Shown here: one piece after another, positions 14,425 to 57,388 of the stretch
How positions within the stretch are numbered: position 1 is the first letter of the stretch
Layout of the letters: every line of letters starts with the position of its first letter
Origin: Carboxydothermus hydrogenoformans Z-2901
GTDB taxonomy: Bacteria > Bacillota > Z-2901 > Carboxydothermales > Carboxydothermaceae
Direction of reading: 5' to 3'
DNA: 64,000 bases
NCBI RefSeq assembly: GCF_000012865.1
Contig: NC_007503.1
Location: forward strand, 1,462,001-1,526,000
Made by a program: the position numbers and the translations under genes
Notes under the pieces: generated by a model
What the model was told of the DNA's origin: nothing
Databases searched by the model: none
The model's input: only the letters and a program-made list of their open reading frames with translations

Positions 14425-14815
14425 GCTAAGGCCCCATCATCTGCTATGTTTTTTAGGTTTCCGGGGCTTGGGCTATAACGACCACTTTACCCAAAACTTT
14501 TCCAAAATTCGTATCAAAATTCTTAAAAGCCCCAAGCTTCTTCTTGAGCTTGAAACCCAACCCGACGACATCTGTAAAAACTGTCCGGAACTCATCAACG
14601 GTTTATGTCGCAGCACTAATAAGGTAAGTAAAAAAGACGAATTTCTCATAACTTTTTTTAATACCAAGGCAATTGCCGTTGAAGATGCCTACAAAAAAAT
14701 AAAGGCCCTGGAAGAGCGTAAATTTATCGCTCTCTGCCAGGACTGTGAGTGGTATCCCTTAGGTTTTTGCCTTGAAGGTTTCCGCAAGTTAAAAAGTACT
14801 TCTTTATTTCCATAA
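14417..14815 (+). CDS. DUF1284 domain protein
   Basis: A 132-residue protein that begins with the DUF1284 signature KLRPHHLLCFLGF. Its cysteines fall in pairs (CKNCPELINGLCR near residue 54, CQDCEWYPLGFC near 111), so it could bind iron-sulfur or zinc. The biochemical role is unknown. It overlaps the bioY stop and so is probably translationally coupled to it. Its 3' end overlaps the convergent nuclease gene by 12 nt. Confidence 0.75.
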   Translation: MVKLRPHHLLCFLGFRGLGYNDHFTQNFSKIRIKILKSPKLLLELETQPDDICKNCPELINGLCRSTNKVSKKDEFLITFFNTKAIAVEDAYKKIKALEERKFIALCQDCEWYPLGFCLEGFRKLKSTSLFP

Positions 14816-15346
14816 GCCCCGGGAGTTTTCCCGGGCTTCTTTTTGGAACTTTACAAACAGCTTGGAGTATTTTACATTGGGAGGAACAGTCATCACCTGA
14901 GCATACCCCTCTAGCAAAAGATGGGCATTAAACATTTTAGCCCGAACCTCCTCTTCAGTAACCTTAACTGGCTTTTTTAACCAGACATAAGCTAAATCTC
15001 GTCCGTATTTATCTTGCTTTTGCACATCATACTCTAAAAAAATAATCCGGCCCTTGTAGAGAACTTTTTTGGTATAATTGAAAGCTTCTTTCCCGTAAGG
15101 CTGTTCCTTAATCCCAAGTTCCGGATGGGAAAGTTCCGGTGTATTTACCCCAATCATTCTTACCCTTATTTCTTTACCGGAAGATAATTTAACTTTTACC
15201 GTATCGCCGTCACTAACTTTTACTACTTTAGCCGGAATAAAATTTGTTGCAGCATCGACATCCCCGGCACACCCCTGAAGAAAAAGTGCAAAAAGTATAA
15301 AAATAAACCAAATTACCTTAACTCGTACCCTTTTCATCTCCTTCAC
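14804..15346 (-). CDS. SNase-like thermonuclease lipoprotein
   Basis: Staphylococcal-nuclease-fold DNase/RNase, probably anchored outside the membrane. The N-terminal hydrophobic segment ends in the lipobox LQGC (Cys near residue 26). The nuclease core follows: DGDTVKV near 50, RVRMIGVNTPE near 68 (catalytic Arg and Glu present, but the Ca-ligand Asp is Asn) and DKYGRDLAYVW near 118 with the second catalytic Arg. Its C-terminal third is strikingly like the first prophage SNase (MFNA-LLL-GYAQV and KFQ-EARE--GLW). It overlaps the upstream DUF1285-like gene by 29 nt. Confidence 0.88.
   Translation of the reverse strand: MKEMKRVRVKVIWFIFILFALFLQGCAGDVDAATNFIPAKVVKVSDGDTVKVKLSSGKEIRVRMIGVNTPELSHPELGIKEQPYGKEAFNYTKKVLYKGRIIFLEYDVQKQDKYGRDLAYVWLKKPVKVTEEEVRAKMFNAHLLLEGYAQVMTVPPNVKYSKLFVKFQKEARENSRGLWK
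14814..14845 (+). terminator. Terminator of bioY-DUF1284
   Basis: AAGCCC(C)GGG and CCCGGGCTT pair around AGTTTT and are followed by CTTTTTGG. It lies inside the 3' end of the convergent SNase gene. Confidence 0.75.
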
Positions 15347-22408: not shown

Positions 22409-22495
22409 GCCGAGATGGTGGAACTGGCAGACGCGCCGGACTCAAAATCCGGTGGGGTAACACCCGTGCGGGTTCGACTCCCGCTCTCGGCACCA
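22409..22495 (+). tRNA. tRNA-Leu, anticodon CAA (prophage attachment gene)
   Basis: Acceptor arms GCCGAGA and TCTCGGC with ACCA encoded. Anticodon stem CCGGA/TCCGG encloses CTCAAAA, giving anticodon CAA (reads UUG). A long variable arm (GTGGGGTAACACCCGT) fits class II tRNA-Leu. From the last base of the 5' anticodon stem onward the sequence is repeated at 57333-57388, so the 3' part of this gene was supplied by the integrated phage and the tRNA remains functional. Confidence 0.95.
22440..22495 (+). repeat. attL core (56 bp)
   Basis: Identical to 57333-57388 over 56 bases, from the end of the 5' anticodon stem through CCA. The sequences differ on both sides of these limits. Confidence 0.92.
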
Positions 22496-51346: not shown

Positions 51347-51458
51347 TTGCATTTTGCAAATCTTTGATTTTATTCTAAACCTATCTTTGCATATTGTCAA
51401 GTTTTATTTTTGAATTTGCAAAGAAAATTTTTTTATCTTATCACTTTGCTATTTGCAA
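51347..51458. promoter_or_regulatory. Operator array of the lysis/lysogeny switch
   Basis: Dyads of the form TTGCA-N3-TGCAA: 51347-51359 (TTGCATTTTGCAA, perfect), 51387-51400 (TTGCATATTGTCAA), 51410-51421 (TTGAATTTGCAA) and 51446-51458 (TTGCTATTTGCAA). One covers the -35 of the cro promoter and one lies within the repressor promoter. Confidence 0.6.
51372..51400 (-). promoter_or_regulatory. Early (cro) promoter
   Basis: Perfect TTGACA (minus strand, 51400-51395), 17-nt spacer, TAGAAT (51377-51372), 41 nt before the Cro-like start. Confidence 0.8.
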
Positions 51459-51467
51459 TGTTATAAT
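51438..51467 (+). promoter_or_regulatory. Repressor promoter
   Basis: Weak TTATCA (51438-51443), 18-nt spacer, perfect TATAAT (51462-51467), 24 nt before the repressor start. A weak -35 over an operator fits a CI-controlled promoter. Confidence 0.6.
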
Positions 51468-51490
51468 TTTGGTAAATAGAGGTGATTCTG

Positions 51491-52255
51491 GTGAACTTCG
51501 GGCAAAGACTTCGACAATTGCGTACAGAAAGAGATTTAACTCAGGCAGAATTGGCAAAATTGCTTTCAATTGGGGAATCCACAATATCTTTTTATGAATC
51601 AAATAAACGGCAGCCAGATTTCGATACCCTCATTAAACTCTCAAATTTTTTTAATGTTTCAATAGATTTTCTTCTTGGTCGCACTGATGAAAGTAATAAA
51701 TTTATTCAAAACACCAAAACTATCCCTTTACTTGGGACAATCCGTGCAGGCATTCCTTTATTAGCTGAAGAAAATTGGATTGAGGAGATTGCATTACCAG
51801 CAGGTATAAAAGCGGATTTTGCCTTACAAGTTGAAGGAGAATCAATGATTTATGCTGGGATCTTCCCTGGAGATATTGCATTTTTCAAACAAAGCGAAAC
51901 AGCAACTAATGGACAAATTGTTGCTGCTGGAGTTGTAGAAGAAACTTGGAAAGCGAATCTTAAATTTTATGTGAAAACAAATGGAAAAGCTTTCCTTAGG
52001 TCAGCAAACCCAAAATACAAAGATATTGAGATTACACCACAACACAAAATAATTGGGATTATGACTGGGCTTGTTCGCCATAATCCCCCTTCAATGACAG
52101 ATTATATTTCACTAGTAATTACTAAAGACGAATTTGAAAATTCTTGGATTGAAACAATTGAAACAGCTTTATCTCTTGGAATGTCACCTATTCATGTAAA
52201 ACAATTAATTGAGATACAAGCTACTCTTTCAAAAATGATCAAACCCAATGAGTAA
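51491..52255 (+). CDS. LexA/CI-like phage repressor with S24 autopeptidase
   Basis: About 254 residues. The N-terminal XRE domain (FGQRLRQLRTERDLTQAELA) binds the operators. The cleavage site Ala-Gly is in LLGTIRAGIPLL near residue 83, the catalytic Ser in LQVEGESMIYAGIFPGD near 113, and the general-base Lys in the EETWKANLKFY region near 150. It should self-cleave when RecA is activated, giving SOS induction. The GTG at 51491 has GAGGTG 6 nt upstream. A C-terminal extension of about 55 residues goes beyond the peptidase fold. Confidence 0.9.
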   Translation: MNFGQRLRQLRTERDLTQAELAKLLSIGESTISFYESNKRQPDFDTLIKLSNFFNVSIDFLLGRTDESNKFIQNTKTIPLLGTIRAGIPLLAEENWIEEIALPAGIKADFALQVEGESMIYAGIFPGDIAFFKQSETATNGQIVAAGVVEETWKANLKFYVKTNGKAFLRSANPKYKDIEITPQHKIIGIMTGLVRHNPPSMTDYISLVITKDEFENSWIETIETALSLGMSPIHVKQLIEIQATLSKMIKPNE

Positions 52256-52278: not shown

Positions 52279-53397
52279 ATGAGTTTTAAAATGGATCAAC
52301 CGGAAAAGTTTCCTTGGTTTAGAAAAATTCCCGGTTTTAGAAGTGGTAAACCTTTAAATATGATAATAGCCTCAATCTTTTATCTTACATACCTGGTTAT
52401 GGCGATTAGCATAATTCGTGAATCATCTAATAATTTTTGGGAAACTGTTGCAATTTTTTCATTAGTCTTTTTGTTACCAATAAGTTTAATTGCCTCAATA
52501 TTTTTAGCTTTTAAGCGTGATCCTCTTTGGAAAAAGTGGTTAGCTGGAGCAGGAATTGCTTTTTTAGTTTTTTTTGTTAGCGTAATAAATTCCCCAACTT
52601 CGCAAGCACCGAATAATAATGCCTCTAAGCCTACTTCAAAACAAGAAGTTGTAGCTACCTCCCAGCAAAATCAATCCACTACTGATTCAATAAGCTCTGA
52701 AAAAACACCTACCATAGCCCCTCAAAGCCAAAATTCACAAACAAATGAAAATACTCAACAGTCCTCCCAAGATCAGCAAGCCCCTATCCCTTTAATTGCC
52801 GCTAAAGTTACAAAAGTAGTTGATGGTGATACTATTTATGTTCGACTTCCCAATGGTTCTGAAGAAAAGGTTAGGTTTATCGGAGTTGACACTCCTGAAA
52901 GCACAATTCAACATGAGCCATATGGCAATGAAGCTTCAAATTATACAAAGTCTAAGTTGGCCGGTAAAACTGTTTACCTTGAAAAAGACGTTAGCGAAAG
53001 AGACAAATATGGAAGATTGCTCCGTTACATTTGGTTAGCAAAGCCCAAAGAAATAAGTGAAAGCGAAATTAGGTCAAAAATGTTTAATGCCATTCTCTTG
53101 CTCGGAGGTTATGCCCAAGTTGCCACTTATCCTCCGGATGTAAAATATGTAGATTACTTTGTCAAGTTTCAACAAGAAGCAAGAGAAGCCGAAAAAGGAC
53201 TTTGGGGAATTTCACCAACTCAAGAAGAAGATATTAGCTTAGCTATTCAGTATGTCGGAAATAAAAATAGTAGGAAATTCCATTACGAGGACTGCCGCTG
53301 GGCTAAAAAAATTGCACCTTCTAATAGGGTTTACTTTAAATCGAGAGAAGCAGCTATAAATGCCGGATATGTTCCTTGTAAAGTATGTAATCCATAG
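52279..53397 (+). CDS. Membrane-anchored SNase-like nuclease with Cys/His tail
   Basis: 372 residues. Three TM helices (about 27-47, 56-78, 86-104); the positive-inside rule (KRDPLWKKW between helices 2 and 3) places the rest outside the cell. A Ser/Thr/Gln-rich linker (105-170) leads to a complete SNase domain with VDGDTIYV, VRFIGVDTPES (Arg, Asp, Glu present) and DKYGRLLRYIW (second Arg). The C-terminus has H-x3-C...PCKVC, an Ada-like zinc site. It starts 23 nt after the repressor gene and so is probably expressed in the lysogen. The SNase part is close to the host lipoprotein at 14804. Confidence 0.85.
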   Translation: MSFKMDQPEKFPWFRKIPGFRSGKPLNMIIASIFYLTYLVMAISIIRESSNNFWETVAIFSLVFLLPISLIASIFLAFKRDPLWKKWLAGAGIAFLVFFVSVINSPTSQAPNNNASKPTSKQEVVATSQQNQSTTDSISSEKTPTIAPQSQNSQTNENTQQSSQDQQAPIPLIAAKVTKVVDGDTIYVRLPNGSEEKVRFIGVDTPESTIQHEPYGNEASNYTKSKLAGKTVYLEKDVSERDKYGRLLRYIWLAKPKEISESEIRSKMFNAILLLGGYAQVATYPPDVKYVDYFVKFQQEAREAEKGLWGISPTQEEDISLAIQYVGNKNSRKFHYEDCRWAKKIAPSNRVYFKSREAAINAGYVPCKVCNP

Positions 53398-53427
53398 CCT
53401 TAAGGCAAAATCCTTGGGGGTATTTAG

Positions 53428-54243
53428 ATGAGTTCTATAGAAAAAATTAAACAATCATTAAAAGAACAAAAAAGTTTATTAATTGGATTATGTTTTTTTA
53501 TTTTGGTATACGTTATAGGCTTAACGCACCCCCAAACAATTCAAGAAAAAGAAGACAATGCCGTTAATAAGACAACTACAACCCAAAAACAAGAACAGCA
53601 ATCTACCTCCGAATTTGTTCCTGCTATAGTTGTCAGAATTCATGACGGTGAAACAATTACAGTACAGCTACCTGATGGAGCTAAGGAGAAAGTTAGACTA
53701 ATTGGTATTGATGCTCCCGTTGAAGATACTCTTATAAATTTAAGCAGTAAAGATCCAGCAAAGTTAACTTTAGCTGATTTATGGGGTAAAACTGTTTATC
53801 TTGAAAAAGATGCTGTTAATAGAGATAGCAATGGTTACTTGCTCCGTTATGTTTGGTTAGAAATACCGGATATTAAACCAAATGTAATAAGTGATTCCGA
53901 AGTACAGAAAAAAATGGTTAATGCCATTCTCTTATTAAATGGGTATGGCAAATATATTAGCACTTCGCCAAATAAAAAATATGAAAGTGAATTAGCGCGA
54001 AGCGAATTTGAAGCTTTTGCTCATAAGAAAGGAATATGGTCAATAAGTACAGCACCACATGCCCCACCCGATTCAAATAAAAGCGTTAAAAAACAAAATA
54101 TTATAGTTTATGTGACATTAACAGGTCATAAATACCATCGTAGCTGGTGCCGATATTTGAAATACAGTAAAATCCCAATTAGTCTTGGTGATGCCATTAA
54201 TGAAGGATATGAGCCTTGTAGTGTGTGTAATCCACCCCAATAA
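53428..54243 (+). CDS. Degenerate membrane-anchored SNase-like paralogue
   Basis: 271 residues. One TM helix (about 17-34), a Thr/Gln-rich linker, an SNase-like domain and the same Cys/His tail (HKYHRSWCRYL...PCSVC). The catalytic set is broken: DTPE is DAPV, so the Glu is missing (VRLIGIDAPVED), and GRLLRY is GYLLRY, so the second Arg is Tyr. The first Arg and the metal-site DGE remain. It is probably not a nuclease but may bind DNA or pair with the upstream copy. It lies 30 nt after that gene. Confidence 0.82.
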   Translation: MSSIEKIKQSLKEQKSLLIGLCFFILVYVIGLTHPQTIQEKEDNAVNKTTTTQKQEQQSTSEFVPAIVVRIHDGETITVQLPDGAKEKVRLIGIDAPVEDTLINLSSKDPAKLTLADLWGKTVYLEKDAVNRDSNGYLLRYVWLEIPDIKPNVISDSEVQKKMVNAILLLNGYGKYISTSPNKKYESELARSEFEAFAHKKGIWSISTAPHAPPDSNKSVKKQNIIVYVTLTGHKYHRSWCRYLKYSKIPISLGDAINEGYEPCSVCNPPQ

Positions 54244-54316
54244 ACTATCTTGTTGGCTTGTTTAAAGAAAAAAGTAGATAAATTGCAGGAATAAATATGC
54301 TAATTAGGAGGTAACA

Positions 54317-54907
54317 ATGCCCACGTTAAGCTTAATGGAATATATTGAAAGTGTTGTAGGGGGATTAGGTGGCTTTTTTCTTGGAATGTTTTTTCTAACA
54401 CTTATTATGTATTTAACTTTTCCAAAAGCAAATTATGGAATTGATATTATTACTGTTCTAATTGTAGAAGCAATAGCTACAGTATTTTTCTTCACTGTAA
54501 AGTATTTTATAAGTAGCTTTATAGATAGCATTTATAAAAAATCTGGAATAAAAGATGTTGATAAAATGAGTGGCGAACAGTTTGAACACTGGCTGGAACT
54601 ATTATTTAAAGACTATGGCTACAAAGTCAAACGAACCCGCAAAACCGCTGATTACGGAGCAGACCTAATTATTGAAAAGGACAATATAAAAATTGCGGTC
54701 CAAGCTAAAAGACATAAAAACAAAGTAGGAATAAAAGCCGTTCAGGAGGCTATTTCAGCAGTAAAATTTTATGGTTGCCAAAAAGCTGCAGTTTGCACCA
54801 ATAACTACTTCACTGAAAATGCGGTAAATCTTGCAAAGGCTAATAATGTTGAGCTAATAGATAGGGATAAGTTAGTAAAGCTTTCTATGGATAGAAGAAA
54901 TAATTAA
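54317..54907 (+). CDS. Membrane-anchored Mrr-like restriction endonuclease
   Basis: 196 residues. Two TM helices (about 14-33 and 41-66) are followed by a restriction-endonuclease-fold domain: MSGEQFEHWLELLFKDYGYK with the helix Glu near 88, then GADLIIEKDNIKIAVQAKRH with the catalytic Asp and Q-x-K. The strands and helix KAAVCTNNYFTENAV complete the Mrr_cat fold. Topology puts the nuclease in the cytoplasm. Such proteins attack foreign or modified DNA. A good ribosome site (AGGAGGT) precedes the ATG. Confidence 0.82.
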   Translation: MPTLSLMEYIESVVGGLGGFFLGMFFLTLIMYLTFPKANYGIDIITVLIVEAIATVFFFTVKYFISSFIDSIYKKSGIKDVDKMSGEQFEHWLELLFKDYGYKVKRTRKTADYGADLIIEKDNIKIAVQAKRHKNKVGIKAVQEAISAVKFYGCQKAAVCTNNYFTENAVNLAKANNVELIDRDKLVKLSMDRRNN

Positions 54908-55006
54908 TAATTATGTCTTATTAGTAGACGTGGAGCATTTTAATCAACTTACTTTTTACTTCAAATAAAAACCAAAAGAATATAAAAGAAGGAGCGATAA
55001 GCTACG

Positions 55007-55810
55007 ATTTACAAAATTTATTGCGACGAAAGTAGACAAACTAATTCTGAATATATATTAGTTGGTGGAATATGGATATTAAAAGAAAAAGGATGGAATT
55101 TTGTAAACGATTTCGAAAAGTTTTGCCAAAATGTTTTAGGCTTAAAAAATCCTATGGGGCACATGAAATGGACTAAAGTCCCCCCATCAGCAAATAGTAA
55201 GTACTTCAAAGCATACGAAAAATTAGTTGACTTATATTTCGAATATAATTCAAAAAATATAATGTTTTTTAGAACCTTAATAGTTAATAAAAACGATTAT
55301 GATTTTACTCATGAAAAATTTTATAAAGGTGATTACGAGGAAGGTTTTTATAACCTCTATTGCCAACTAATATTAAACTGGCTTCAAAAATCAAACGAAT
55401 ATCACATCCGAATAGCTCATCGACCTATAAAAAAAGCTTCTAGAGATGATTGTGAAGAGTTTAGACTTAATTGGTTAAAAGAAAAACTTAATAATAAGTT
55501 TGAAAGTACAATAAATAAATATTCATGGTTTTTCGGTTATCAAAAAGTAAAGCCTCCAGTAATAACTATAGAAAGTAGAGAAGCAAGAGAAAGGAGACTT
55601 ATACAAATAGCCGATATATTAATGGGAGCAGTTGGCTTCTATTGGAATAAAGAACATTTGAAAAGTAACGTCAGAAATGGTAAACTCACACTCGCAAAAT
55701 ACATTGCATCAAAATTAGGAAGAAATGATTTATTGTTTACTACTAAATGGAATGATAAAAGATTTAACATCTTTCTTTTTGATACATCAAAAACCAAGTT
55801 AAAAAAATAA
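55007..55810 (+). CDS. DUF3800 protein with a probable non-canonical ATT start
   Basis: An ATG at 55154 begins a 218-residue frame, but the frame is open 49 codons upstream to 55007 and encodes the DUF3800 signature there (IYKIYCDESRQTNSEYILVG; normally M-x-x-Y-x-D-E-S). A TAA lies three codons before the ATT; no ATG, GTG or TTG is available between. AAGGAG lies 12 nt upstream. The conserved C-terminal QIADILMGAVGFYW is present. DUF3800 has an RNase-H-like fold and is often in defence islands; the activity is unknown. Either ATT (or ACG) starts it or the start has been lost. Confidence 0.75.
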   Translation: MYKIYCDESRQTNSEYILVGGIWILKEKGWNFVNDFEKFCQNVLGLKNPMGHMKWTKVPPSANSKYFKAYEKLVDLYFEYNSKNIMFFRTLIVNKNDYDFTHEKFYKGDYEEGFYNLYCQLILNWLQKSNEYHIRIAHRPIKKASRDDCEEFRLNWLKEKLNNKFESTINKYSWFFGYQKVKPPVITIESREARERRLIQIADILMGAVGFYWNKEHLKSNVRNGKLTLAKYIASKLGRNDLLFTTKWNDKRFNIFLFDTSKTKLKK

Positions 55811-55939: not shown

Positions 55940-56066
55940 TATTAATATTATACGCCATTATCCAAAAAAAATCCTTCTTTTTTGAAAAATTTTTATGTTA
56001 AATTTTTTGTTAGTGGGGAATTTTTTATTTTCTTTTCTTTCGAACATTTGTTTTGGAGGTGTTACT

Positions 56067-57182
56067 TTGCGCGGACACATAAGAAAAAGAGGCAATTACT
56101 ATTCGGTCGTTCTCTACTTAGGTAAGGATGAAAACGGCAAGAAAAAATACAAATGGATTGGAGGATTCAAAACCAAAAAAGAGGCCGAGAAAGTTTTGGC
56201 GGAAATGATAAACAAGGTAGAGACCAACAATTTTATATTCCCTGAAAAGATTACCTTGAAGGAGTTTTTGAATTACTGGTTAGAGAACTATGTCCGTCCC
56301 AACCTCTCACCTACTACTGCTTATGGCTACGAGGCCATTATTAATTTACACATTATTCCTTTTTTCAAAAACATCGAGCTTCAAAAAGTACGGCCAATTG
56401 ATATTCAGCAGTACTACAATTCAAAAAGGGATGAGTTATCAGGGAAAACGCTATTGCAGCACCACCGGATACTACATAAAGCGTTTGACTTTGCTATGAA
56501 ATTGCAATTAATCCCTAATAACCCAATCGACTTTGTCGATAGCCCGAAAGCTAAGAAGTATAAAGCAAAAATCCTTGATTTGAAAGAAATTAAAACCTTG
56601 CTAAACGCTTTAAAAGATACTGACTTAGAAGTTCCAATAAACTTAGCACTTTCATTAGGTCTAAGACGCGGCGAATTGCTTGCTTTAAAGTGGGAAGATG
56701 TTAATTGGGAAGAAGGTACGATCCAAATTAGAAGAAACTTGGTCCGGGCAGGCACGAAACTAATTTTAAAAGAACCTAAGAGCGAAACCAGTATCAGGAC
56801 CTTGAAACTTTCTAAAACACTTCTAACCATGTTAAAAAATCACCGCAAAAAACAAATAGAACTTAAACTAATGCTTGGCAATGAATACAAAGACACTGGA
56901 TTTATTTGTTGTAAAAACAATGGTGAAATGATAAACCCAAGCACTTTTAGCCATCAATTCTCTGATTTCCTAAAAAAGCACGGGCTTCCAGACATTCGTC
57001 TGCATGATCTGCGACATACAAACGCCACACTAATGCTCAAAAGTAATATTCCTGCCAAAATTGCAAGCTCCAGGCTTGGCCACTCAACAGTAGCCATCAC
57101 TCTTGACTTATATTCGCACGTTTTAACCGACATGGATGAAGAAGTCGCAAATAAAATTGATGACATCATTTACCAAAAATAA
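56067..57182 (+). CDS. int: Tyrosine-type phage integrase
   Basis: 371 residues. Arm-binding AP2-like N-domain (RGHIRKRGNYYSVVLYLGKD), SAM-like core-binding domain (KEFLNYWLENYVRPNLSPTT) and catalytic domain with Arg in LGLRRGELLALKW, HDLRHT, LGHST and the nucleophile in YSHV. TTG at 56067 with GGAGGTG 4 nt upstream is the best start; the frame upstream lacks a ribosome site. It reads toward attR, 150 nt away, and should integrate the phage at tRNA-Leu(CAA). Confidence 0.93.
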   Translation: MRGHIRKRGNYYSVVLYLGKDENGKKKYKWIGGFKTKKEAEKVLAEMINKVETNNFIFPEKITLKEFLNYWLENYVRPNLSPTTAYGYEAIINLHIIPFFKNIELQKVRPIDIQQYYNSKRDELSGKTLLQHHRILHKAFDFAMKLQLIPNNPIDFVDSPKAKKYKAKILDLKEIKTLLNALKDTDLEVPINLALSLGLRRGELLALKWEDVNWEEGTIQIRRNLVRAGTKLILKEPKSETSIRTLKLSKTLLTMLKNHRKKQIELKLMLGNEYKDTGFICCKNNGEMINPSTFSHQFSDFLKKHGLPDIRLHDLRHTNATLMLKSNIPAKIASSRLGHSTVAITLDLYSHVLTDMDEEVANKIDDIIYQK

Positions 57183-57332: not shown

Positions 57333-57388
57333 ACTCAAAATCCGGTGGGGTAACACCCGTGCGGGTTCGACTCCCGCTCTCGGCACCA
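57333..57388 (+). repeat. attR core (56 bp, partial tRNA-Leu)
   Basis: Identical to 22440-22495, the 3' part of tRNA-Leu(CAA) including CCA. It lacks the 5' half and is not a functional tRNA; this copy marks the displaced host 3' end. Confidence 0.92.

What the first reader, a model, noticed from the sequence alone, without database searches (positions are those of the whole stretch)
52279..55810. Repressor-linked cassette of membrane nucleases and DUF3800
Four genes follow the repressor on the same strand with short gaps and their own ribosome sites, so they are likely expressed in the lysogen. Two encode SNase-like domains placed outside the membrane (positive-inside rule), one a membrane-tethered Mrr-like nuclease with a cytoplasmic active domain, and one a DUF3800 protein. 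Together they could form a barrier to incoming DNA: degradation at the outside, then inside the membrane. I know no described system with this set.
Basis: inference. Interest (0 to 1): 0.8.

Follow-up and report, generated by a model that had tools for sequence, protein, structure and literature searches.

The report
Prophage locus of surface-anchored nuclease genes
Between its repressor and integrase genes this dormant virus carries four extra genes, including a predicted DNA-cutting enzyme held on the outside of the cell; enzymes of this kind recur at the same spot in many unrelated viruses, so they probably help keep rival viruses' DNA out, though this is untested and the four genes look like two separately acquired pairs.

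Summary
The four genes exist, on one strand, between a CI-like repressor and a tyrosine integrase of a ~35-kb prophage inserted in a tRNA-Leu gene (56-bp att repeats). SNase1-SNase2 recurs alone (97%) in another prophage of the genus; Mrr-DUF3800 recurs without SNases in a third congener (96%) and in Moorella phage MCACPph1. All four together were seen only here. The general pattern is real: 13 of 22 non-redundant viral contigs with related SNases have them between repressor and integrase. The host carries a paralogue of the membrane Mrr beside a SNIPE homologue. Best reading: a lysogeny-module superinfection-exclusion locus, with anchored nucleases attacking entering DNA. A coordinated four-protein barrier is not supported. 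No function has been shown.

The parts
51482..52255 (+). CI-like repressor (HTH_3 + S24 peptidase-like domain)
   Evidence: Pfam Peptidase_S24 1.1e-21, HTH_3 5.2e-18
51372..51467 (.). divergent promoter-like sites of the lysis-lysogeny switch (+: 51438-51467; -: 51400-51372)
   Evidence: consensus scan, 10 and 11 of 12 matches; total number of sites not above shuffles
52279..53397 (+). SNase1: three hydrophobic segments, linker, SNase domain (aa 197-309) predicted outside, C-terminal Cys/His motif (aa 325-372); catalytic residues intact
   Evidence: Pfam SNase 6.4e-21 and Ada_Zn_binding 2.2e-5; PDB SNase alignment; residue table
53428..54243 (+). SNase2: one hydrophobic segment plus degenerate SNase domain (D21E, T41A, E43V, R87Y) and C-terminal Cys/His motif; probably non-catalytic
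   Evidence: Pfam SNase 1.7e-10; alignments; residue table; dN/dS 0.18 between two prophages
54244..54261 (.). junction between the two modules: similarity to the sister-species prophages ends at about 54244 (SNase module) and begins at about 54261 (Mrr module)
   Evidence: blastn of window against L016, L017, L018
54317..54907 (+). TM-Mrr: two predicted TM helices and a cytoplasmic PD-(D/E)XK domain with E90, D116, Q129, K131
   Evidence: Pfam Mrr_cat 1.4e-34; conservation in 25 homologues; AlphaFold2 pLDDT 87.7, nearest folds include modification-dependent restriction enzymes and Hjc resolvases
55004..55810 (+). DUF3800 protein, corrected extent (start ACG 55004 or ATT 55007), RNase H-like fold, no TM
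   Evidence: open frame and CDES motif; Pfam DUF3800 8.2e-10; PADLOC PDC-M04A 1.3e-30; AlphaFold2 pLDDT 88.3, nearest folds RNase HII
55995..57182 (+). tyrosine integrase (likelier start TTG 56067 after GGAGG)
   Evidence: Pfam Phage_integrase 3.1e-24; upstream sequences
57333..57388 (+). attR, 56-bp copy of the tRNA-Leu 3' end
   Evidence: 100% identical direct repeat
22440..22495 (+). attL inside intact tRNA-Leu(caa) 22409-22495

Best explanation
The region is the accessory part of a prophage lysogeny module, the slot between repressor and integrase, loaded with two separately acquired two-gene modules. Most likely it protects the lysogen against DNA entering from other phages. Shown by sequence: position, strand, domain content, predicted topology, modular transfer, and recurrence of anchored SNases and anchored Mrr proteins in this slot in other temperate phages. 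Inferred: the genes are transcribed with the repressor; SNase1, anchored in the membrane with its catalytic domain outside, cuts phage DNA as it crosses the cell-wall zone, where the host chromosome is out of reach; TM-Mrr cuts DNA emerging at the inner face. SNase2 (non-catalytic) would act as a DNA- or protein-binding partner. DUF3800 (RNase H-like) may be an auxiliary nuclease, weakly expressed here because of its start codon. The modules probably work side by side rather than as one machine.
For: SNase recurrence: in viral contigs, 13 of 22 non-redundant loci have a same-strand HTH gene upstream and a recombinase downstream of the SNase; 3 more are cut off on the informative side. Same slot in Aeribacillus phage AP45 and Anoxybacillus phage A403 and in a Desulfovirgula thermocuniculi prophage, where an SNase with a lipobox-like signal is followed directly by DUF3800 and the integrase. 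Catalytic residues are kept in all slot SNases tabulated except SNase2, apart from N at position 40 in several. TM-Mrr: repressor-Mrr-recombinase in five gut viral contigs (L041-L044, L046) and two other genomes (L190, L198). Mrr-DUF3800 pair: Moorella phage MCACPph1 and congener G002. Defence links: own-genome TM-Mrr paralogue (73-74% identical) beside a PD-Lambda-1/SNIPE homologue, PADLOC 8e-123; DUF3800 relatives beside a PLD-helicase plus adenine methylase, a type IIG enzyme and a type I/II methyltransferase. Purifying selection: dN/dS 0.10 (SNase1), 0.18 (SNase2). Precedents from papers: Ltp, in int-ltp-metalloprotease order, blocks DNA injection from outside the membrane (PMC3952083); SNIPE is a membrane nuclease cutting DNA during injection (PMC13190303).
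Against: No expression, nuclease or plaque data. Close SNase homologues are also common as stand-alone chromosomal genes with no prophage context, so the domain itself does not imply defence. The 13/22 figure is biased: the search alignment was made from slot-type SNases. DUF3800 lacks a standard start codon, and its G002 copy is truncated with D7 changed to N, which suggests decay. TM calls rest on hydropathy, not a dedicated topology predictor.
Confidence: 0.55

Rival explanations
1. Lysogenic conversion unrelated to phages: SNase1 is a surface nuclease that digests environmental DNA for nutrients, biofilm or competence, and the prophage carries it as a fitness gene.
For: Most near homologues examined from the 300-genome phylum sample (65 genomes with hits) are stand-alone chromosomal SNases, often with one TM or a signal peptide; the same host has a further chromosomal SNase.
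Against: Enrichment in the repressor-integrase slot across unrelated phages; co-residence with Mrr and DUF3800 genes whose relatives sit beside defence genes.
Confidence: 0.2
2. Passive accumulation of morons: unrelated genes parked in a permissive slot, some decaying, with no joint function.
For: Two modules with separate histories and a sharp junction; non-standard DUF3800 start; truncated, D7N DUF3800 in G002; degenerate SNase2.
Against: dN/dS 0.10 and 0.18 for the two SNases; Mrr-DUF3800 and SNase-DUF3800 adjacency recur in other genera.
Confidence: 0.15
3. One reading: one integrated barrier of outer SNases, inner Mrr and DUF3800 acting in sequence.
For: Predicted topology fits; all four genes lie in one direction behind the repressor.
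Against: SNase2 lacks catalytic residues; the pairs move separately; the full set was found only in the window.
Confidence: 0.08

Closest known systems
SNIPE / PD-Lambda-1 (PMC13190303)
   Same: Membrane-anchored nuclease acting on DNA during entry (proposed here, shown for SNIPE); a TM-Mrr paralogue sits next to a SNIPE homologue in this genome.
   Different: SNIPE is one protein with DUF4041 and GIY-YIG domains on the cytoplasmic side; here the domains are SNase (outside) and PD-(D/E)XK (inside), with no DUF4041.
Ltp superinfection-exclusion lipoprotein of phage TP-J34 (PMC3952083)
   Same: Same slot in the lysogeny module, expressed in the prophage, tethered outside the cytoplasmic membrane, acts at DNA injection.
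   Different: Ltp is a short non-nuclease protein thought to bind the tape-measure protein; SNase1 has an intact nuclease active site.
YokF-type SNase of SPbeta-like phages
   Same: Phage-encoded SNase domain (36-38% identical over the domain).
   Different: Context in SPbeta phages was not examined here; SNase1 adds three TM segments and a C-terminal Cys/His motif.
PADLOC candidate system PDC-M04
   Same: DUF3800 matches PDC-M04A (1.3e-30).
   Different: The partner PDC-M04B, present beside other DUF3800 genes, is absent here.
Mrr-type and type IV restriction enzymes
   Same: PD-(D/E)XK fold; nearest solved folds include MspJI, AspBHI and Hjc.
   Different: Two N-terminal TM helices and no separate DNA-reading domain in 196 aa.

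Membership tests
Staphylococcal nuclease family (SNase1) | SNase domain with D21, R35, D40, E43, R87 | tested here: met
Staphylococcal nuclease family, as active enzyme (SNase2) | same catalytic residues | tested here: not met
   D21E, T41A, E43V, R87Y; identical in the sister prophage
Mrr_cat (PF04471) | profile above cut-off and conserved E-D-QxK | tested here: met
   119 bits against cut-off 21; D116, Q129, K131 invariant, E90 nearly so
DUF3800 (PF12686) | profile above cut-off with N-terminal acidic motif | tested here: met
   40 bits against cut-off 21 with the corrected N-terminus; D7, E8, D109, D203 invariant
PDC-M04 system | DUF3800 (A) with adjacent PDC-M04B | tested here: not met
   no B-like gene in the ORFs around the window copy, whose neighbours are Mrr and integrase; B found beside the L124 and L126 copies
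SNIPE | DUF4041 plus GIY-YIG nuclease | tested here: not met
   absent from all cassette proteins; present in the separate own-genome locus L018
Superinfection-exclusion gene of a lysogeny module | location between repressor and integrase, same strand as repressor | tested here: met
Superinfection-exclusion gene of a lysogeny module | expression in the lysogen and block of superinfecting phage | not testable with these tools
   needs RNA-seq and plaque assays

The most novel reading that the evidence does not exclude
Membrane-anchored, outward-facing SNases in the repressor-integrase slot form a widespread, undescribed superinfection-exclusion family that destroys phage DNA outside the cytoplasmic membrane, telling self from non-self purely by place, often with a partner gene (a dead SNase, a PH-SHOCT protein, a DUF4236 protein or DUF3800).
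Probability: 0.35. Interest if true: 0.8.

Novelty: new variant of a known kind. Interest (0 to 1): 0.55.

Why it matters
SNIPE showed that a nuclease placed at the membrane can recognise phage DNA by location. If prophages widely carry the mirror-image arrangement, with the nuclease outside, that gives a simple and testable mechanism for superinfection exclusion in Gram-positive lysogens, and explains why a nuclease gene keeps recurring beside phage repressors. The SNase2 case also raises the question of why a phage conserves a dead nuclease next to a live one.

Tried and rejected
Single-protein viral-contig scans with Mrr and DUF3800 found nothing; alignment scans did. A class-level relative search held only three genomes. 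Searching the class around G003 gave no Mrr match and only one further, fragmentary DUF3800 match already seen in the phylum sample. PDB sequence search found no DUF3800 relative. Literature searches found no described phage SNase system of this kind. One dN/dS value for DUF3800 was out of frame and is discarded; the in-frame stretch is 98% identical. Considered and rejected: a lytic-cycle role for the SNases (wrong strand and neighbours), and PDC-M04 membership.

Full report
SETTING. The window is bases 1462001-1526000 of a 2,401,520-bp single-contig genome. From its size and gene content I take it to be Carboxydothermus hydrogenoformans; this is from memory and not verified. The finding lies in a prophage of about 35 kb: a 56-bp direct repeat of a tRNA-Leu(caa) 3' end at 22440-22495 and 57333-57388 marks attL and attR, and lytic-module ORFs run on the minus strand between them. 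The cassette sits on the plus strand between a CI-like repressor (51482-52255) and a tyrosine integrase (55995-57182).

OBSERVATION. The four genes are there. SNase1 (372 aa) has three hydrophobic segments, an SNase domain and a C-terminal Cys/His motif weakly matching Ada_Zn_binding; SNase2 (271 aa) has one segment and a weaker SNase match; the third protein has two segments and a strong Mrr_cat domain; the fourth is DUF3800. No standard start codon exists there; ACG 55004 or ATT 55007 follows AAGGAG, and congener G002 has the same ACGATT, so a sequencing error is unlikely. Translation efficiency is therefore in doubt.

SNASE2 IS PROBABLY NOT A NUCLEASE. Against the solved staphylococcal nuclease and against relatives, SNase2 has D21E, T41A, E43V and R87Y. 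The copy in the sister-species prophage has the same changes. dN/dS between the two copies is 0.18, from few changes (7 synonymous, 5 non-synonymous), so it appears to be maintained rather than decaying. SNase1 and every slot SNase tabulated keep D19, D21, R35, T41, E43 and R87 (several have N at position 40).

TWO MODULES, NOT ONE CASSETTE. Congener G001 carries a prophage next to smpB with a different repressor, an ImmA-like gene and a serine recombinase; in this region only SNase1-SNase2 is shared at high identity, 97.2% over window 52286-54244 (the same prophage type is IMG/VR contig L023). Congener G002 shares window 54261-55329 (Mrr and the first part of DUF3800) at 96% without the SNases; its DUF3800 is truncated into another integrase and has D7 changed to N. 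The own-genome paralogue L018 also begins its similarity at about 54261. The four-gene set was seen only in the window.

RECURRENCE OF THE PARTS. Moorella phage MCACPph1 has repressor, ImmA-like gene, TM-Mrr (38%), DUF3800 (37-38%) and serine recombinase in that order. A Desulfovirgula thermocuniculi prophage has repressor, ImmA-like gene, a TM coiled-coil protein, an SNase with a lipobox-like signal, DUF3800 (50-52%) and tyrosine integrase. Aeribacillus AP45 and Anoxybacillus A403 carry a TM-SNase in the slot. A viral-contig scan with a four-sequence SNase alignment gave 22 non-redundant loci; 13 have a same-strand HTH gene within 5 kb upstream and a recombinase within 5 kb downstream, and 3 more are cut off on the informative side. 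A slot of about four genes among about 55 in a phage would give under 10% by chance (my estimate), but the query was built from slot SNases, so the enrichment is overstated to an unknown degree. For TM-Mrr, five of ten viral contigs (several near-identical) and genomes G100 and G151 show repressor-Mrr-recombinase. In contrast, most chromosomal SNase and Mrr homologues of the phylum sample have no such context.

LINKS TO DEFENCE. In the same genome, beside smpB in what looks like a prophage remnant, a TM-Mrr paralogue (73-74%) sits between a SNIPE homologue (PADLOC PD-Lambda-1 8e-123; DUF4041 and GIY-YIG) and an HTH-M78 gene. DUF3800 relatives lie beside a PLD helicase and an HmaB-like methylase (G112), a type IIG enzyme (L050) and a type I/II methyltransferase (L051). 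The DUF3800 model resembles RNase HII weakly (E 1.3e-4, TM about 0.4), in line with the published RNase H-like prediction (PMC10910872). The Mrr model resembles AF1548, MspJI, AspBHI and Hjc. PADLOC's PDC-M04B partner is missing here.

MECHANISM. Prophage genes in this slot are known to block superinfection: Ltp lies between integrase and a metalloprotease-motif gene, is made in the prophage state, is tethered outside the membrane and stops DNA injection (PMC3952083). SNIPE cuts phage DNA at the membrane during injection (PMC13190303). I infer that SNase1 does outside what SNIPE does inside. That the host chromosome is spared because the active site is outside is an inference from predicted topology. 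TM-Mrr plausibly acts at the inner face. The roles of SNase2 and DUF3800 are guesses.

VERDICT. A real, partly misread observation. The integrated four-protein barrier is unlikely; a mosaic superinfection-exclusion locus with an outward-facing SNase as its most interesting part is the best reading. The wider pattern, anchored SNases recurring beside phage repressors, deserves a proper census and a plaque assay.

Noticed in passing
L018:4284-8188 (G000:C1 about 259283-263187): Own-genome remnant beside smpB with a SNIPE (PD-Lambda-1) homologue, a TM-Mrr paralogue, an HTH-M78 gene and a DUF4411 gene, next to a broken serine recombinase.
   Followed up: partly
L239, L240, L242-L244 and L241, L245-L248, gene directly upstream of the SNase: Slot SNases of several viral contigs are preceded at -3 to +17 bases by one of two protein families: bPH_3 plus SHOCT (one is annotated as a putative tape-measure protein in phage A403) or DUF4236. 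The PH domain recalls PH-type membrane anchors reported for TM-less SNIPE homologues.
   Followed up: partly
window 54998-55016: DUF3800 frame with SD AAGGAG but only ACG/ATT as possible start, conserved in congener G002.
   Followed up: partly
window about 14804-15346 (minus strand): Another SNase gene with a signal-like N-terminus outside the prophage, near a lytic-transglycosylase-like ORF; catalytic residues intact apart from N at position 40.
   Followed up: no
L016:4007-5117: Two unknown genes between the SNase pair and the recombinase in the G001 prophage; one has coiled coil plus a TM and resembles a gene in the phage AP45 slot.
   Followed up: no
L121:7495-15585: A DUF3800 gene 48-49% identical to the window copy lies downstream of a PLD-SNF2 helicase and a DUF1156/HmaB-type methylase on the same strand, a candidate defence operon.
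   Followed up: partly
window 55995-56067: The integrase ORF's first ATG (55995) has no Shine-Dalgarno; TTG 56067 follows GGAGG and is the likelier start.
   Followed up: no
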